Below are positions 3,292 through 20,673 of a stretch of 64,000 nucleotides of DNA, one piece after another (the stretch's first letter is position 1; every line of letters starts with the position of its first letter). The position numbers and the translations under genes were made by a program. The notes beneath the pieces were generated by a model. The model was not told the origin of the DNA and did no database searches. It worked only from the letters and a program-made list of their open reading frames with translations. This DNA comes from Pedosphaera parvula Ellin514 (GTDB taxonomy: Bacteria > Verrucomicrobiota > Verrucomicrobiia > Limisphaerales > Pedosphaeraceae): contig NZ_ABOX02000005.1 of the NCBI RefSeq assembly GCF_000172555.1, forward strand, positions 1 through 64,000. The letters are read 5' to 3'.

Positions 3292-5052
3292 ATGAAAAGG
3301 ACAGCAACCCGAGACTTGCGGCTTATCTGGATTCTTTGTTTATTGGCGGGGAGCTTCCTGGTAACGGCAATTGGCAATGCACAAACCAATCTGAATGTTT
3401 CAAAGCCGGTAAGGTTGAGCGAAGCTGAGAAAGCGTGGTTGCGGCAACACCCGGTGGTGTATTGGGGAGTCGATCCCCATTGGCCTCCATTTTCGAGCTT
3501 TGACAGGCAGGGACGAGCCTCGGGCATCAATGTGGAAATGGTTGAGCTCATCGCGAAGCGGGCGGGATTGAACATCAAGCTGGTGCAGACGCCTGCGTGG
3601 TCTGAAACACTTCGCAAAGCTGACACGCGTGAGATTGATTTTATAGGCGGAATTGCACGCACCGAAGAACGGGAGCGGCTGCACGGTTTAAAATTTACCG
3701 AAGCCTATTGTTCATTCCCGACAGCCATCATCACTCGCGAGAATACGCCGTTTTTTACCCCACTTGAGGAACTCATCAAGTCGCTGCGAATTGCCCTGCC
3801 ACGGAATTATGCCACCACGGAAGAGCTCCTGCGGGATTATTCTGGAGCGCGGGCGGTGCTCACAGATACCGAGGAAGAAAGCATGTTGGCCGTAGCCGGT
3901 AACAAGGCTGACGCCACCGTGCTGAACCTTGCCAGTGCCAGCTACATCGTGCATATGCGCGGGCTGGCCAATCTGAAGATCTCCGGTTTCACCGACCCTG
4001 AATTTTATCTGAGACTGGCAGTGCGCAACGATATGCCGGAACTTCATTCCATCCTGGAGAAAGGCCTGGCCACGATCGACAAGCGGGAAGCAGAAGCGAT
4101 ATATGCCAAGTATATTCTACCGGGAACGCTGGAGGAAATTAACTGGAGGACATGGCGTCGCCGGGTGATATATTTCATTTTAATTGGGGGGGCCGCACTG
4201 GTGGGGGCTCTGCTTTGGAACCGAAAACTGGCTGGTGAAATTCGCCGACGCGAGGCGGCAGAAATAGACTTGCGCCGGGTGCGAGACCAACTGGAGAAAC
4301 ATACCCGGGAACTCGATCGTCACGCCACTGAGATGCAGGGATTGAATGAGCGGTTGGTCAGCGCGAACAAGGATTTGGAGTCGTTCTCTTCTTCAGTATC
4401 ACACGATCTCAAGTCGCCACTGCGACGGCTCCGGAGCTTTGTTGATTTGTTGCAGGAGGACGCTGGTGATACGCTCAACGCCGAAGGTCGGGAGTGCCTG
4501 GCCATTATCAACCATGAGGCGCGTCGAATGGGGCAGTTGATCGAGGATCTGCTGGCCTTTTCGCGAGTCGGCCGTTCGGAAATGCACCTGGCACCTGTAA
4601 ACCTTGAGCAATTGGTGAACGAGGTGGTTCGCGATGTCCAGCTTGAAACCAAAGGGCGGGAAATCATCTGGCAGATTGAGCCTCTGCCTGAAGTGCGGGG
4701 AGACCGTGCGTTATTGCGTCAGGCTGTCGTAAATCTGATTGATAACGCCGTCAAGTTCACTCGCGGCCGCAGTCCGGCAAGGATCAACTTTGGTGTCCTG
4801 CCGGCTAAACCCGATGACAAAGAGGTGACGTTCTATATCCGGGACAACGGTTCGGGGTTCGATATGAATTATGCCTACGCCATATTCGAAGCTTTCCAAA
4901 GGCTGCATAGTCAGGAGGAATTTGAGGGCACGGGCATCGGGCTGGCCAATGTTCAGCGTATTATTCAGCGGCACGGAGGGCGTGTTTGGGCCGAGGGCGA
5001 GGTCAATAAAGGGGCGACCTTTTACTTTACCCTGCCTCGAAAGATGTCGTAG
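3292..5052 (+). CDS. Sensor histidine kinase with periplasmic SBP_bac_3 domain
   Basis: A 586-residue membrane sensor kinase. Order of parts: signal/anchor segment (10-28), periplasmic solute-binding family 3 domain (about 42-280), transmembrane helix (292-309), coiled coil (315-365), HisKA domain with phospho-acceptor H371 in SVSHDLKSPLRRL, and HATPase_c with N box NLIDNAVKFT (481-490), G1 DNGSGFD (518-524) and G2 GTGIGLANV (546-554). The layout resembles EvgS/BvgS-type sensing of small amino-acid-like ligands, but there is no receiver or HPt domain, and no response regulator gene is adjacent, so its partner must be encoded elsewhere. The start was moved 57 bases in from the longest frame because the signal segment begins there. 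Confidence 0.88.
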   Translation: MKRTATRDLRLIWILCLLAGSFLVTAIGNAQTNLNVSKPVRLSEAEKAWLRQHPVVYWGVDPHWPPFSSFDRQGRASGINVEMVELIAKRAGLNIKLVQTPAWSETLRKADTREIDFIGGIARTEERERLHGLKFTEAYCSFPTAIITRENTPFFTPLEELIKSLRIALPRNYATTEELLRDYSGARAVLTDTEEESMLAVAGNKADATVLNLASASYIVHMRGLANLKISGFTDPEFYLRLAVRNDMPELHSILEKGLATIDKREAEAIYAKYILPGTLEEINWRTWRRRVIYFILIGGAALVGALLWNRKLAGEIRRREAAEIDLRRVRDQLEKHTRELDRHATEMQGLNERLVSANKDLESFSSSVSHDLKSPLRRLRSFVDLLQEDAGDTLNAEGRECLAIINHEARRMGQLIEDLLAFSRVGRSEMHLAPVNLEQLVNEVVRDVQLETKGREIIWQIEPLPEVRGDRALLRQAVVNLIDNAVKFTRGRSPARINFGVLPAKPDDKEVTFYIRDNGSGFDMNYAYAIFEAFQRLHSQEEFEGTGIGLANVQRIIQRHGGRVWAEGEVNKGATFYFTLPRKMS

Positions 5053-6068: not shown

Positions 6069-6713
6069 ATGTCAGAGTCCACATCCAATCCAACGACGAG
6101 CACGGGTCCGTTGCTGATCATCATTTCGGCGCCGTCCGGCGGTGGCAAGACCACGCTATGCCAGCAATTGCTCGCCACCTATCCCGGTTCGATGACCAGG
6201 GCAGTCACCTGCACGACTCGTGCGCCGCGCGAGGGAGAGAAGGACGGGGTGGATTATTATTTCATTGATGCCGGGTCGTTTCTCAAGCGCTTGCAGGCGG
6301 GTAATTTTCTCGAGCACGCGACGGTTTATGGGAACAGCTACGGCACCTTGAAGTCCGAGGTGTTGGGCAAGTTGCGGCAGGGGAAGGATGTGTTGCTGAG
6401 TGTGGATGTTCAGGGGGCCACGACGATTCGCAACCAGGCGGAAGATGAGCCGGAGTTGAAGAAGGCGATGATCCAGGTGTTCCTGACGCCGGTATCGCTG
6501 GCGGTGCTGGAAGAGCGCTTGAAGCGACGCAATGCGGATGCCTTGCCGGTGATTCAAAAACGATTGAGCGTGGCGCGGCAGGAGATTTCGCAATGGCGTC
6601 ATTTCGATTACCTGATCACGAGCACGACGATTGGGGAGGATTTGCGCCGGATGAAGGCCATCATTGAAGCGGAGAAGATGAGGATTACGCGGTCGCATCC
6701 GCCGGAGATGTAA
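6069..6713 (+). CDS. gmk: Guanylate kinase
   Basis: Catalyses ATP + GMP to ADP + GDP, an essential purine salvage and (p)ppGpp-pool enzyme. The 214-residue protein has the P-loop APSGGGKTT (21-29), the GMP-binding TRAPREGEKDGVDYYF block, and the lid and adenine-binding segments ERLKRRNAD and FDYLITS near the C-terminus. The N-terminus carries about 14 extra Ser/Thr-rich residues before the first beta strand. It follows yicC by 49 bases in a conserved pairing. rpoZ or coaBC, which often follow gmk, are not downstream here. Confidence 0.96.
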   Translation: MSESTSNPTTSTGPLLIIISAPSGGGKTTLCQQLLATYPGSMTRAVTCTTRAPREGEKDGVDYYFIDAGSFLKRLQAGNFLEHATVYGNSYGTLKSEVLGKLRQGKDVLLSVDVQGATTIRNQAEDEPELKKAMIQVFLTPVSLAVLEERLKRRNADALPVIQKRLSVARQEISQWRHFDYLITSTTIGEDLRRMKAIIEAEKMRITRSHPPEM

Positions 6714-16245: not shown

Positions 16246-16310
16246 GAAAAAGGGGGCGGCGTCTCGTGGAGACACCGCCCCGGCCCACCTCCTGGGTCTT
16301 GTTTCCCGCT

Positions 16311-18149
16311 TTACGAAGTCGCAGTTGTGGTTGTGCTCGGCGGTGCGACGGACTTATCGCCGACCTGGTTGCGGAGCATGAGGCCGATCATGCTGTCGAC
16401 GAGGCCGTTGCTGGCGCCGGCGTTGTTGACGGCGACGTCGGGCGTGATGCGGACGTTGCGTTCGCCCACGATTTGCATGAGTTGCATGACCGTGTAACCC
16501 TGCGTGCCGATGGCGTCGACACCAGCGCGATAGGCTTCGGCCTTGGCGTTACCGGTGGCGCGAATGGCTTCGGCTTCACCGAGGGCGCGGAGGCGGATGG
16601 ATTCGGCTTCGCCACTGGCCTGCTTGATGTGCGCGTTGGCCTGGAGTTCGGCGATGTTGACGCCTTGCTCGGCGCTGACGACTTGTTGCTGGATGTCGGC
16701 CAGCGAGGTTTGGCGGACGAGTTGTTGGCGCTGTTTTTGTGCCGCTTCCTGGGTCTCGTACGTCTTCCGTTGTTCCTCCGCGATTTTGCGGTCGGTTTGC
16801 GTGGCCATCAGGGTGGCGGGCGGATTGATGTCGCCGATGAGCGTATCGATGGCTTGGACGTCGTAGGCGCCGATGGCGACGCGGATGTGTTCCGCGGCGT
16901 CGGTCTGGCGTTCGCTGCGTGCGCTGAGGAAATCGAGCACGGTGAAGTTCTGCGCCGAGTTGCGGAAGTAATTGCCGACAATCGGTTGCAGCACGTGATC
17001 GACGAGGTTTTGCATCGAGCCGACACGCGAGATGACCTTGGGGGCATCGAGCGCGCCGACGTGGATGATTTGCGAGACGTCGAGGTTGAAGGCAAAGCCA
17101 TCGCGCGAACGCACGGTGATGGAGCTGAGTTTGGCATCGTAATTATGCGACTCGGTGCGATTGGCCCAGTTGAGGACGATGTTCGTGGTGGGCACGAGTT
17201 CGACCTTCATGATGCGAGTGTTGATGGGATGTTTGCCCGGATAGAGCGGCGAGACCCAAACGCCTTTGTGGCCAGGATTGACGAGGTCGCCATGTTTGAA
17301 GTCGACGCCGCTGACATCTTCGTGGGCTTTGCCGACGAAGGAGATAACCACGCCGACGTGGCCGATGGGGATTTGCAGCATCGGGACTTGTTCGACGTGC
17401 GCGAACCAGGGGTTGAGATTCCAGGTGCCCGACAGGAGAATTTGCTCCTGCAAGCCGCGTCGACCGCCGCCATTCAAGAAAGCCTGGGCGTTCTGGAAGT
17501 TGTCGTGATCGGCAATGATTGGGCCGGCGATTTCACTTTGCTCGATTGGACGACCATCGAGTGTGGTGACAATGCCGACTTTATCCGGCTCGACGTGGCG
17601 GAGTTGGAGATCGTGGGACATCATGCCGTGCTCCTGGGCGTTGTACGAGGTGATGACCGTGAACAGCGCGGTATTAATGCGGTACGTGCCGGCAGTAAGG
17701 ATGCCGAGTTGACGGCCTTTCTCGCCGCCGTAGACGAGGAATTTGCGCGCGTCCTGGAAGTTGTCGCTATCGACGACTTTGGCCAGAATGCGTTCCGAGG
17801 GAATCGGCATGCCGTCGGCCGCGACGACGAGGGCGATTTCGCCTTGTGGCACGATGGTGACGGGGACTTTGATGATGCGATATTGCCAGCGCCAGAATCC
17901 GAAATGGAGACCGGGCGCAAGAGTATCGGCCTGATAACCGGCTTCGCCATTGAGGGCGAGGAGTTGGCCGGGTGGCAGGGATTTGCCGGGCGAGAATCGT
18001 TTGATGACCACGCCGACCTGACGTTCGTGGATGAGAACCGTCCCGAAAATCAGCGGACCTGCGAAGAGCAAGGCGCCGAGGATGACTGCCGCGACGCCAA
18101 TGAGGGCGCTGGGGAACACCTGGCCGAGGATAAGAGTATTGGCCATCAT
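16311..18149 (-). CDS. SPFH/Band-7 (flotillin-like) membrane protein
   Basis: A 612-residue protein with an N-terminal hydrophobic segment (about 13-40), a long prohibitin-homology region to about residue 440, a coiled coil rich in Gln, Glu and Ala (about 455-550, with AEAIRATGNAKAEAYRAG typical of flotillins), and a Ser/Thr/Pro tail. Residues 103-165 and 189-252 look like an internal duplication (both contain a DNFQ-A-FL block followed by a G-rich turn). SPFH proteins oligomerise on membranes and organise microdomains or protease complexes. Its upstream region carries a c-di-AMP riboswitch, so its level probably responds to that messenger. AAGG precedes two adjacent ATGs; the first is reported. 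Confidence 0.85.
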   Translation of the reverse strand: MMANTLILGQVFPSALIGVAAVILGALLFAGPLIFGTVLIHERQVGVVIKRFSPGKSLPPGQLLALNGEAGYQADTLAPGLHFGFWRWQYRIIKVPVTIVPQGEIALVVAADGMPIPSERILAKVVDSDNFQDARKFLVYGGEKGRQLGILTAGTYRINTALFTVITSYNAQEHGMMSHDLQLRHVEPDKVGIVTTLDGRPIEQSEIAGPIIADHDNFQNAQAFLNGGGRRGLQEQILLSGTWNLNPWFAHVEQVPMLQIPIGHVGVVISFVGKAHEDVSGVDFKHGDLVNPGHKGVWVSPLYPGKHPINTRIMKVELVPTTNIVLNWANRTESHNYDAKLSSITVRSRDGFAFNLDVSQIIHVGALDAPKVISRVGSMQNLVDHVLQPIVGNYFRNSAQNFTVLDFLSARSERQTDAAEHIRVAIGAYDVQAIDTLIGDINPPATLMATQTDRKIAEEQRKTYETQEAAQKQRQQLVRQTSLADIQQQVVSAEQGVNIAELQANAHIKQASGEAESIRLRALGEAEAIRATGNAKAEAYRAGVDAIGTQGYTVMQLMQIVGERNVRITPDVAVNNAGASNGLVDSMIGLMLRNQVGDKSVAPPSTTTTATS

Positions 18150-18324
18150 AACAACCTTCTACTGAGGTTGCGCACCGCGCGTTTGTTTGCCGCCGGGTCT
18201 GCGGCTGGTCGCCGGCCTGCATGTTTGCGACAGGCCATGGCGATCAGTGATCGCTTTCCCGGTTGCCGCGCGATGCGACAACGCATTTTTTGTGGGGAGA
18301 CCGTGAGAGCCGCGACATGCGGCC

Positions 18325-18480
18325 TTAGAGGATCGCCCTTCCAATTGCCGACGAGGTTAGCTGACGGGCTCGGTCCTGGAAGTGACCTTGATCGCGGTTA
18401 CCCGCAATCTTACGCCCCATCCTCAAATTGCTTTGAGGAACCTGGTTCCCCCGCGTTGACCTTCAGGAAGGAAGGCCAAC
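18325..18480 (-). promoter_or_regulatory. Cyclic di-AMP riboswitch (ydaO/yuaA type)
   Basis: Read on the minus strand, this segment holds the conserved ydaO/yuaA elements in order: AACGCGGGGGAACC (about 18457-18444), AUGGGGCGUA (about 18420-18411) and the hallmark GACCGAGCCCGUCAGCUAAC-CUCG (about 18375-18352). Candidate outer pairing is CCUUCC on the 5' side with GGAAGG on the 3' side. The aptamer lies about 175 bases upstream of the SPFH gene on the same strand. This RNA class binds c-di-AMP and usually turns off osmolyte, potassium or cell-wall genes. I see no strong U-tract terminator between aptamer and gene, so the expression platform is unclear; a GCCGC-GCGGC stem lies at about 18308-18322. 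Confidence 0.9.
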
Positions 18481-18737
18481 TTAGGCTGCTTCATAACTAC
18501 ACACGACCCATTCGCTCTTTTAAGAAAAAATGTCAATTGCGATCGGGAGGTGCGGAGGGTAAGTTATTGATGCAGAGGCTAATCCTACGGTTCGATGTTT
18601 TGGCTCCGGAGCAGAAGAAAGCTTCAAGTGGACTGAAATTGATTCTGAGAAGGGTTGATTGCAACACGGGATTAGGCATTGGAACAACTTGGACGATTCC
18701 ATATGCTCGGAAGAATATTGGGGAAAGAAAAATCGAA

Positions 18738-19787
18738 ATGAAACACGAGGTCAGTGACCAATCTGCAGGACCGTTGACAGCTAGGCCGACTAATTCCGGA
18801 GAACGCAAGCCGATTGATATGCACGTGCATATCGTGGGTAATGGCGCGGGAGGATCGGGATGCCGATTGCATTTGAGTGGATGGCACAAGCCGCTGGCGT
18901 CGATGATGCTGAAGGGGATTGGCTTGCCGAAAGAGGCGTTGACCGGCGATCTTGAGGGCTTGTATGTGGCGAAGTTATTGGAGTGGGTGCGTGGATCATC
19001 GTTGGGAGCGATTGTGATTTTGGCGCAGGATGAAGTGCGCAACGAAAAGGGAGAGGTGATGCATGGTGTGGGTTCGTTCTACGTGCCGAATGATTATGTG
19101 CTGAAGCTGGCGCGAGAGAATGCGGAGTTCCTGCCAGCCGTTTCGATACATCCAGCACGGCCTGATGCGATGGAGGAATTGGAGCGTTGCCTGGCAGAAG
19201 GTGCGGTGATGATGAAGTGTTTGCCGAATTGTCAGAATATTAATTGCGGCGACAAAAAGTTTACAAAGTTTTGGGAACGGATGGCGGAGGCGAAGTTGCC
19301 ATTGCTTGCGCATACGGGAGGTGAGCACACGGTGCCGGTGGTGCGCAAAGAATTTGCGAACCCGAGAATATTGGAGTTGCCGTTGAGATGCGGAGTGACG
19401 GTGATTGCGGCGCATTGTGCGACGAAAAGTGGTTTGACTGATCCGGAGTATTTTTACGATTTCGCGAAGATGACGGAGGAGTTTCCGAACTTATATGGGG
19501 ATACCAGCGCGTTCAACGTGCCTCTGCGCGGGCGGCATATTGATAAATGCGTATTGCGGCCGCTGGTGGAACGGATGGTGCATGGCAGTGATGTTCCGGT
19601 GCCGGTGAGCGGGATCTGGGCGTGGATGCGCGGCTATCTGGATTGGGATAGTTTACAAAAATGGGGTGAGAACCCCAATGTGCTGGAAAGAGATTATCAG
19701 CTCAAACTCGCCATGGGGTTTCCTATGGAATGCTTTACCCGGATTCACGACATCATGAGGCCCGTTGGGAAGAATTCTCCAAAGTAG
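18738..19787 (+). CDS. Amidohydrolase-2 family metal-dependent hydrolase
   Basis: A 349-residue cytoplasmic TIM-barrel protein. The metal-binding strand-1 motif is DMHVHIV (H29, H31); further candidate ligands are in LLAHTGG (mid-protein), AAHCATKSG and the strand-8 aspartate in HGSDVPVPVS. This order fits the COG2159 amidohydrolase group (decarboxylases and hydrolases such as ACMSD relatives); the substrate is unknown. The annotated frame extends much further upstream, but that part is antisense to the SPFH gene and riboswitch. The ATG at 18738 has GGGGAAAG about ten bases upstream and gives a normal family length. Confidence 0.8.
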   Translation: MKHEVSDQSAGPLTARPTNSGERKPIDMHVHIVGNGAGGSGCRLHLSGWHKPLASMMLKGIGLPKEALTGDLEGLYVAKLLEWVRGSSLGAIVILAQDEVRNEKGEVMHGVGSFYVPNDYVLKLARENAEFLPAVSIHPARPDAMEELERCLAEGAVMMKCLPNCQNINCGDKKFTKFWERMAEAKLPLLAHTGGEHTVPVVRKEFANPRILELPLRCGVTVIAAHCATKSGLTDPEYFYDFAKMTEEFPNLYGDTSAFNVPLRGRHIDKCVLRPLVERMVHGSDVPVPVSGIWAWMRGYLDWDSLQKWGENPNVLERDYQLKLAMGFPMECFTRIHDIMRPVGKNSPK

Positions 19788-20645: not shown

Positions 20646-20673
20646 CCCCGTTCTAATCAGAACGGGGTTTTTT
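20646..20673 (+). terminator. Intrinsic terminator/attenuator between glnB and glnA
   Basis: Perfect nine-base stem CCCCGTTCT/AGAACGGGG with loop AATC and six T immediately after. Placed in the 69-base gap between glnB and glnA, it probably lowers read-through so that glnA is partly independent. Confidence 0.85.

What the first reader, a model, noticed from the sequence alone, without database searches (positions are those of the whole stretch)
18325..18480. c-di-AMP riboswitch controlling a flotillin-like SPFH gene
The conserved ydaO/yuaA elements GCGGGGGAACC, AUGGGGCG and GAGCCCGUCAGCUAAC-CUCG occur in order on the strand of the SPFH gene, 175 bases upstream. This riboswitch class normally controls potassium uptake, osmolyte or cell-wall hydrolase genes. 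A flotillin-like target would link c-di-AMP to membrane organisation.
Basis: partly seen in the sequence, partly recalled or inferred. Interest (0 to 1): 0.75.

Follow-up and report, generated by a model that had tools for sequence, protein, structure and literature searches.

The report
c-di-AMP switch on vault-like SPFH gene
Bacteria of the phylum Verrucomicrobiota place a known RNA sensor of the signal molecule c-di-AMP, usually found before potassium-uptake genes, in front of a gene for a membrane-anchored, cage-type protein, which suggests that this protein belongs to their potassium and osmotic response.

Summary
Rfam RF00379 matches 18497..18331 on the minus strand at 60.5 bits (cut-off 38), 181 bases before the ATG of a 612-residue SPFH gene (18149..16311). 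A TTGACA box lies 33 bases before the aptamer and an intrinsic terminator follows the gene, so the RNA probably leads that gene's transcript. The pairing is conserved: 45 matches in 29 of 58 genomes precede 14 orthologues of this gene, 3 genes of a second SPFH family, 25 transporter genes and 3 unassigned stretches. Of 80 named-genome loci with close homologues, 45 carry the RNA, among them all 43 with Verrucomicrobiota labels; the cyanobacterial, Chloroflexota and Acidobacteriota ones do not. A protein tree needs one change. A conserved hairpin-like element without U-tract follows the aptamer and resembles that of Kup, KimA and TrkH leaders. The protein model best matches major vault protein and prohibitin, not flotillin in particular. 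Most likely it is an OFF switch that yields SPFH protein when c-di-AMP is low. Ligand binding, sign and protein function are untested. The aptamer class is known; this target was not found in the papers searched, whose key tables could not be read.

The parts
18531..18536 (-). TTGACA, -35-like box directly upstream of the riboswitch; the hexamer 17 bases on, GAATGG, is a poor -10, and the consensus promoter scan did not report this site
   Evidence: sequence; TTGAC lies 20-50 bases before the aptamer in 39 of 43 leaders (2 of the 45 left out), 200 shuffles mean 1.1, max 5; scan negative on this strand
18331..18497 (-). c-di-AMP riboswitch aptamer, RF00379
   Evidence: cmscan 60.5 bits, cut-off 38, full model
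18464..18471 (-). loop of the first aptamer hairpin, CCUUCCUG; contains CUUCC, complementary to the 3' tail GGAAG (candidate alternative pairing)
   Evidence: sequence; CUUCC in this loop and GGAAG/GGGAG in the tail: 27 both, 13 neither, 3 tail only, 0 loop only, of 43
18375..18383 (-). aptamer loop ACUUCCAGG; its CUUCCA can pair with UGGAAG at 18343..18338 (the aptamer pseudoknot)
   Evidence: sequence; an aptamer pseudoknot of this class is mentioned in PMC9337991 (passage)
18338..18343 (-). 3' tail UGGAAG, pseudoknot strand
   Evidence: sequence
18295..18338 (-). conserved element just 3' of the aptamer (proposed expression platform): outer helix GGG-GAUC (18338..18331) with GGUC-CCC (18302..18295), enclosing a small hairpin (18323..18309); no U-tract
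   Evidence: alignment A5; 94.8% of cells paired against 39.5-68.6% when slid, covariation modest; arm-swap test 0 of 500; RNAalifold did not find it; model search of the own genome reports only the two SPFH leaders
18262..18282 (-). second hairpin in the leader (GUUGUCGC/GCGGCAAC); its UUGUCG could pair with CGGCAA of the aptamer's P1 3' strand
   Evidence: sequence only; similar letters in some relatives' leaders by eye; no statistic
16311..18149 (-). SPFH1 gene, 612 aa, including stop: N-terminal helix 12-35, beta-repeats to about 256, SPFH domain, long helices 445-563
   Evidence: ORF, Band_7 3.9e-27, AlphaFold2 model pLDDT 80.8, Foldseek/VIA-align
16253..16281 (-). intrinsic terminator after the SPFH1 stop codon: 13-pair stem, tail CTTTTT
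   Evidence: by eye U-tailed hairpins also follow SPFH1 in L035, L041, L042 and L049

Best explanation
A stand-alone transcription unit: an RNA whose first ~170 bases are a c-di-AMP aptamer, followed by a conserved hairpin-like element and one SPFH gene, closed by a terminator. When c-di-AMP is high (enough K+), the bound aptamer, with its 3' tail held in the pseudoknot, sets the downstream element so that little SPFH protein is made; when c-di-AMP falls (low K+ or osmotic stress) the protein is made together with the K+ importers (Kup, KimA, TrkH) that carry the same aptamer and a similar element in related genomes. The protein is a membrane-anchored SPFH subunit with vault-like repeats, likely to form a ring or cage in the membrane that organises or restrains transporters during the osmotic response. 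Shown by computation: the aptamer, its place ahead of the gene, the conserved pairing, the conserved downstream element, the predicted fold. Inferred: transcript start, ligand binding, OFF sign, how the element acts (no U-tract, so Rho-dependent termination or control of translation rather than an ordinary terminator), and the job of the cage.
For: RF00379 60.5 bits. Diadenylate cyclase PF02457 in the own genome and in 54 of 58 genomes. 45 matches in 29 of 58 genomes, 2 of the 45 below the cut-off; genes after them: SPFH1 14, SPFH2 3, Kup 11, KimA-type 6, APC permease with Usp domain 7, TrkH 1, unassigned 3. SPFH1 occurs in 15 of 58 genomes at E 1e-30; 14 have the RNA in front, the 15th is a fragment cut by a contig end. 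SPFH2 occurs in 4 of 58; 3 have the RNA, the 4th starts 6 bases into its contig. 80 loci of named genomes (best 80 of 319): 45 RNA-positive, 35 negative (of the positives 22 seen by Rfam by the core motif only). Tree of 86 proteins needs one change between positive and negative (support 94), 0 of 500 label shuffles as low. TTGAC in 39 of 43 leaders. Similar downstream element before SPFH, Kup, KimA and TrkH genes. OFF sign reported for class members: PMC6488665 and PMC9337991 (passages). Fold; nearest solved sequence QmcA 4.2e-8.
Against: The consensus scan reported no promoter on this strand and no intrinsic terminator between aptamer and ATG, so the best-studied mechanism of the class does not apply as such. 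A hairpin over the Shine-Dalgarno of the window gene (GCAACCU/AGGUUGU) is weak or missing in the other leaders I read by eye. RNAalifold on A5 found 2 pairs and not the outer helix. On A5 covariation is modest: 2 of 7 pairs change on both sides (73 of 500 shuffles as high), 4 cells (2 of 500), further pair types 57 of 500; one pair is broken in 14 of 56 rows and 6 more cells are unpaired elsewhere. In the 5 SPFH1 regions I listed, neighbours differ except glnA-type and ABC genes near both the window and its close relative L042, so context names no partner. SPFH1 occurs outside the phylum at about 70% identity without the RNA, a 49% paralogue in G047 lacks it, and 7 of 9 further homologues sampled from the phylum lack it.
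Confidence: 0.75

Rival explanations
1. Same RNA and gene, but an ON switch: c-di-AMP binding raises SPFH expression, so the cage would act when K+ is plentiful.
For: No terminator is visible, so the sign cannot be read from the platform.
Against: A similar downstream element follows the aptamer in Kup, KimA and TrkH leaders, where switching off at high c-di-AMP is the sensible direction; class members tested in PMC6488665 and PMC9337991 are OFF (passages).
Confidence: 0.13
2. How it acts, first option inside the main reading: control of translation. The element, or the hairpin over the Shine-Dalgarno, blocks ribosomes rather than stopping transcription.
For: Window leader can pair GCAACCU with AGGUUGU over the AAGG Shine-Dalgarno; no U-tailed hairpin in the leader on this strand.
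Against: That hairpin is weak or absent in the other leaders read by eye; the element lies at varying distance from the start codon.
Confidence: 0.3
3. How it acts, second option inside the main reading: Rho-dependent termination in the stretch between element and ATG is what the aptamer controls.
For: Rho is present in the own genome (2 matches of PF07497); an untranslated stretch follows the element without terminator.
Against: No test of Rho sites was made; an untranslated leader is not specific evidence.
Confidence: 0.35
4. The aptamer has drifted to another ligand or is a non-functional relic.
For: Some SPFH1 leaders score low (37.9 bits, just under the cut-off, in G047).
Against: Many core positions are invariant across the 31 of 43 leaders aligned, which serve SPFH, Kup, KimA and TrkH genes alike; no loss among the 43 Verrucomicrobiota-labelled loci sampled; the ligand-making enzyme is present.
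Confidence: 0.04

Closest known systems
c-di-AMP riboswitch, RF00379 (ydaO/yuaA)
   Same: Scores above the gathering cut-off over the full model; core motifs; loop and tail able to form a pseudoknot; linked in related genomes to Kup, KimA-type and TrkH genes.
   Different: Target is an SPFH gene; the element after the aptamer is a conserved hairpin-like stretch without U-tract instead of a visible intrinsic terminator; first hairpin carries a CUUCC loop in 27 of 43 leaders and 35 of 37 of the named set.
E. coli QmcA (SPFH protein, 8z5g)
   Same: Only solved sequence matched by the family profile at E 0.001 (4.2e-8, profile 339-552); SPFH domain followed by a long helix.
   Different: QmcA chain is 305 residues and matches only the C-terminal half; the repeat region of SPFH1 (about residues 38-256) has no counterpart in that alignment.
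Major vault protein
   Same: First six Foldseek rows, 646-691 alignment columns with gaps, E down to 1.6e-12; VIA-align Z 10.5, 414 residues aligned, model 34-567: beta-repeats, then SPFH-like shoulder, then long helix.
   Different: TM-scores are low and rmsd high (42.4 in that row), so the parts sit differently; human vault protein has nine repeats (PMC13347060, passage), SPFH1 about three or four by my reading of the model; SPFH1 has a predicted N-terminal membrane helix; identity 10-13%; no Vault family of Pfam reported.
Prohibitin / erlin / stomatin / HflK-HflC
   Same: Best VIA-align scores (PHB1/2 Z 16.3, 196 residues, rmsd 5.1, model 257-490); ring or dome-forming membrane proteins.
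   Different: The alignments cover the SPFH domain and helix, not the repeat region before residue about 200-257.
Flotillin
   Same: SPFH domain; structural matches at Z 11.5-11.7.
   Different: No Flotillin (PF15975) match in the window protein at E up to 5; flotillin ranks below prohibitin and erlin.

Membership tests
c-di-AMP riboswitch RF00379 | covariance-model score at or above the gathering score over the whole model | tested here: met
   60.5 bits against 38, positions 1-134
c-di-AMP riboswitch RF00379 | conserved core sequences and P1 closing stem | tested here: met
   cmscan alignment, one non-standard pair in P1 marked; many core columns invariant in 31 of 43 leaders aligned
c-di-AMP riboswitch RF00379 | loop-tail pseudoknot | tested here: met
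   CUUCCA 18382..18377 complementary to UGGAAG 18343..18338; complementarity in other leaders seen by eye, no statistic
c-di-AMP riboswitch RF00379 | binds c-di-AMP and changes gene expression | not testable with these tools
   needs bench work
SPFH / Band 7 superfamily | Band_7 domain | tested here: met
   PF01145 3.9e-27, residues 258-471
Flotillin | C-terminal Flotillin domain PF15975 | tested here: not met
   no match at E up to 5 in the window protein (HMMER's filters drop many weak matches); the Nostoc homologue L144 has a sub-threshold match, 18.3 bits against 27
Major vault protein | tandem vault repeats plus shoulder plus cap helix (by fold) | tested here: inconclusive
   Foldseek rows and Z about 10; two internal repeats align with each other, 111 against 23.6 shuffled (R2-R3); no Pfam vault family
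Prohibitin/HflK/QmcA type SPFH ring | oligomeric ring or cage in the membrane | not testable with these tools
   only the monomer was modelled

The most novel reading that the evidence does not exclude
Verrucomicrobiota use c-di-AMP to set the amount of a membrane-anchored, vault-like SPFH cage (and, in some lineages, a second SPFH subunit in the same regulon, once adjacent in the same direction) that encloses or gates K+ importers, so that K+ homeostasis is controlled both by making transporters and by caging them; the RNA does this with a lineage-specific platform in which the aptamer's 3' tail changes pairing partner between two aptamer loops.
Probability: 0.2. Interest if true: 0.85.

Novelty: new variant of a known kind. 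Interest (0 to 1): 0.62.

Why it matters
c-di-AMP riboswitches point to genes of the K+ and osmotic response. In the 29 riboswitch-bearing genomes examined, SPFH genes (two families pooled) are 17 of 42 assigned targets, next to 25 transporter genes, and the link held in all 43 Verrucomicrobiota-labelled loci among the 80 closest homologues. That gives an uncharacterised SPFH family a signal, a likely physiological setting and a simple assay, and ties bacterial SPFH proteins to osmotic control, as recently proposed for human stomatin with aquaporin-1 and UT-B (PMC12407830, abstract read). It also offers a c-di-AMP platform of an unfamiliar build to dissect.

Tried and rejected
Rejected or weak: (1) An anti-aptamer pairing of GUUCUCCCC in the downstream element with GGGGGAAC of the aptamer fits many leaders by eye but does not track changes between them (read); dropped. 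(2) Shine-Dalgarno hairpin of the window gene as the general mechanism: weak or missing in the other leaders read by eye. (3) The first arm-pairing script failed and its first repair used only 12 of 43 leaders because of a faulty pattern; on all 43 replaces both. In one search the 7 permease-Usp leaders, which have a different element, are in 'all' and left out in 'group A'; both gave 0 of 500 swaps as high. In the subset with a 5' arm other than GAUC the result was weaker: 8 of 17 paired fully against a mean of 3.4, 4 of 1000 as high; in group A 6 of 10 against 2.8, 12 of 1000 as high. That search takes the best partner in a window, and for some rows picked another site than the one in the alignment. 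(4) A5 was trimmed at a 3' arm chosen by a pattern: of 45 leaders 13 were left out beforehand (1 contig end, 1 weak hit, 7 permease-Usp leaders, 4 Kup leaders with divergent letters there: L048, L054, L064, L073), 3 had no such end (L060, L066, L069), 29 went in; of 38 motif-bearing named loci 27 went in, the rest being letter-identical to rows already in; row L128 is cut before its 3' arm. So counts on A5 lean towards the helix. (5) A1 holds 31 of 43 leaders, chosen by me; the permease-Usp and most divergent ones were left out. (6) The first AlphaFold2 job with 12 similar rows was useless (pLDDT 34); the second with 43 rows worked. (7) The repeat test used overlapping segments, so its R1-R2 and R3-R4 scores are artefacts; R2-R3 counts, R1-R3 and R2-R4 are weak. 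(8) Phylum sample: SPFH1-like proteins at E 1e-60 in 10 of 194 genomes; besides the window, L174 and the distant L182 carry the RNA, L175-L181 do not within the flanks held: the link is with the close orthologues, not with every SPFH homologue. (9) Of 35 negatives, L145 has only 154 bases upstream and L172 was tested with the motif only; the 80 loci are the best of 319, so less similar relatives were not seen. (10) The tree is a quick one, with 29 of 83 inner branches under 80 support; the dividing branch has 94. (11) The own-genome search with the element model scored 150 of 1689 first-look candidates, so a weak stray copy could be missed. (12) Absence from print rests (and 83, 92 for vault-like bacterial proteins); the two papers most likely to list gene associations (Nelson 2013, Block 2010) are not held, so an entry such as 'band 7 protein' in their tables is possible. 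One search listed 20 of 237 papers and 20 of 42. Of the 10 papers with c-di-AMP and flotillin only the listing was seen.

Full report
What is there. Rfam RF00379 matches window 18497..18331 on the minus strand with 60.5 bits (gathering 38), end to end. Reading on in the same direction, 181 bases separate it from the ATG of a 612-codon ORF, 18149..16311, whose residues 258-471 are a Band_7/SPFH domain (E 3.9e-27). NCBIfam gives no name at E 0.1. A TTGACA box lies at 18536..18531, 33 bases before the aptamer; among 43 leaders examined (2 of 45 left out) TTGAC lies 20-50 bases upstream in 39, against a shuffled mean of 1.1 and maximum of 5 in 200 shuffles. The -10 is poor, and the consensus promoter scan reported nothing on this strand. 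After the stop codon comes a 13-pair hairpin with CTTTTT at 16281..16253, and no terminator-like site was found on that strand between aptamer and ATG. The gene upstream (18741-19787, plus strand, Amidohydro_2) is divergent.

The ligand is available. The genome has one match to the diadenylate cyclase domain (PF02457, E 3.3e-39); 54 of 58 genomes (own included) have it.

The pairing is conserved. Of 58 genomes (own and relatives), 29 have RF00379 matches. I took all 45 matches (two of them below the cut-off, 37.9 and 29.3 bits) and asked by tblastn which gene follows: SPFH1 (orthologue of the window gene) 14, Kup 11, APC permease with Usp domain 7, KimA-type 6, SPFH2 3, TrkH 1, none assigned 3, of which L043 is cut by a contig end 15 bases after the aptamer, L055 has only 636 bases left on its contig, and L074 is the 29.3-bit match. 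Names rest on Pfam for one to three members of each type, on NCBIfam for Kup, and on the solved KimA structure 6s3k (3.9e-63) for the KimA type; the permease-Usp protein has no solved relative at E 1e-5. SPFH1 was found in 15 of 58 genomes; 14 have the RNA in front, and the 15th match begins at residue 378 at the end of a contig. A 49% identical paralogue in G047 has no RNA. SPFH2, a second Band_7 protein only distantly similar (24.8% over 238 residues), was found in 4 of 58 genomes; 3 have the RNA and the 4th starts 6 bases into its contig. In one named genome (L117) the order is riboswitch, SPFH2, SPFH1, with 61 bases between the two genes; SPFH2 was found in only that 1 of the 80 loci. In G039 a riboswitch-KimA unit is followed by a riboswitch-SPFH2 unit.

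Across phyla. A search of named genomes with the SPFH1 alignment gave 80 loci (best 80 of 319 relatives). 45 have the RNA upstream: 38 by the core motif and 7 more by Rfam; Rfam was also run on 15 of the 38 and confirmed all 15; the other 23 rest on the motif. By record title, 43 of the 45 are Verrucomicrobiota, including Pedosphaera, Opitutae, Methylacidiphilales and two Verrucomicrobium records not marked as metagenome-assembled; one is 'bacterium RI_55' and one is labelled Bacteroidetes (L137), which the tree puts with two Verrucomicrobiota rows (support 100). The 35 without are 28 cyanobacteria, 6 Chloroflexota and 1 Acidobacteriota by title; L145 has only 154 bases upstream and L172 was tested by motif only. 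No Verrucomicrobiota-labelled locus among the 80 lacks the RNA. In a tree of 86 proteins the 47 RNA-positive rows are one side of one branch (support 94), 0 of 500 label shuffles as low. More distant homologues in the phylum mostly lack it: of nine sampled beyond the window, L174 (73% identity) and L182 (41%, 131 bases upstream of the ORF) have it and seven do not.

The element after the aptamer. The 17 SPFH leaders of the relatives continue with GGAAGGGCGAUCCUCU or a variant of it, a small variable hairpin, then mostly CA-N-GNUC-N-CCCC; Kup, KimA and TrkH leaders have similar but more varied letters; in the named set the 5' part was recognised in 33 of 45, six of the others not having been read because the motif did not place them. 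GGG-GAUC can pair with GRUC-CCC around a one-base mismatch; where the 3' arm reads GUUC one pair is lost. On 56 trimmed sequences 94.8% of cells pair, against 39.5-68.6% when the partner is slid; changes on both sides are few (4 cells, 2 of 500 shuffles as high; 2 pairs, 73 of 500), and RNAalifold did not find the helix. On 43 untrimmed leaders, dealing the 5' arms out anew never reached the observed pairing in 500 trials. A model of the element reported only the two SPFH leaders in the own genome, 150 of 1689 candidates scored; the third riboswitch, before the permease-Usp gene, has another downstream sequence. The tail GGAAG is complementary both to the aptamer loop of the pseudoknot and to the CUUCC loop of the first aptamer hairpin; loop CUUCC and tail GGAAG/GGGAG occur together in 27, neither in 13, tail alone in 3, loop alone in 0 of 43 leaders; in the named set, with GGAAG counted strictly, 32 both, 3 loop only, 2 tail only of 37. 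Relatedness can produce such an association, so a partner swap is a hypothesis only.

The protein. With 43 diverse sequences the model has mean pLDDT 80.8 and pTM 0.62: a helix 12-35, beta-repeats, an SPFH domain and long helices 445-563. Foldseek's first six rows are major vault protein chains (646-691 columns with gaps, E down to 1.6e-12, low TM-score), followed by prohibitin, erlin, stomatin, HflK/C and flotillin among the rows. VIA-align ranks prohibitin first (Z 16.3, 196 residues, rmsd 5.1) and its best vault row has Z 10.5 (414 residues, rmsd 42.4). A middling Z with high rmsd supports a shared arrangement, not descent. By sequence profile the only solved relative is QmcA. Two internal repeats align clearly (R2-R3).

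How it most likely works. In the class, c-di-AMP binding lowers expression in the cases I read: PMC6488665 and PMC9337991 (passages). Because the SPFH leaders share the aptamer and a similar downstream element with leaders of K+ importers in the same order of bacteria, I infer the same sign: SPFH made when c-di-AMP is low. The absence of a U-tract, where the same gene ends in a U-tailed terminator, points to Rho (present) or translation. The cage role is inferred from fold and from co-regulation; human stomatin with aquaporin-1 and a urea transporter (PMC12407830, abstract) is an analogy.

What is known. PMC6488665 states that c-di-AMP riboswitches before ktr, trk, kdp and kup transcripts have been predicted in several phyla including Verrucomicrobia (passage); PMC7266159 lists K+ and amino acid transporters, cell-wall and osmotic proteins as targets (passage). 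No paper in the held library joins ydaO with SPFH or 'c-di-AMP riboswitch' with flotillin. The original gene-association tables could not be read.

Noticed in passing
window 16266-19787, plus strand: A 1173-codon open frame runs antisense through the whole SPFH gene and the riboswitch into the amidohydrolase gene; an automatic caller could take it for one gene.
   Followed up: no
L056 (G039:C57) 3807-3972 and 6398-6560, minus strand: Two c-di-AMP riboswitches in a row: one before a KimA-type importer, the next before SPFH2.
   Followed up: partly
L034, L038, L040, L044, L046, L068, L071: A conserved APC permease with a C-terminal Usp domain (Pfam on L034 only) is a further riboswitch target; its leaders have a different downstream sequence.
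   Followed up: partly
L182 3491-3672, minus strand: A distant SPFH homologue (41% identity) has a c-di-AMP riboswitch (42 bits) 131 bases upstream of its ORF, perhaps an independent gain.
   Followed up: partly
L117 2173-5806: Riboswitch, SPFH2 and SPFH1 in a row on one strand, hinting at a two-subunit SPFH complex.
   Followed up: partly
L136, L142-L144, L146, L148-L153 and other cyanobacterial loci: SPFH1 is about 70% identical in Nostocales and Chloroflexota, without the riboswitch: high conservation between phyla, perhaps by transfer.
   Followed up: partly
window 20646-20673, plus strand: U-tailed hairpin after a P-II-like ORF, next to glnA-like and dnaA-like ORFs (gene names by eye).
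   Followed up: no
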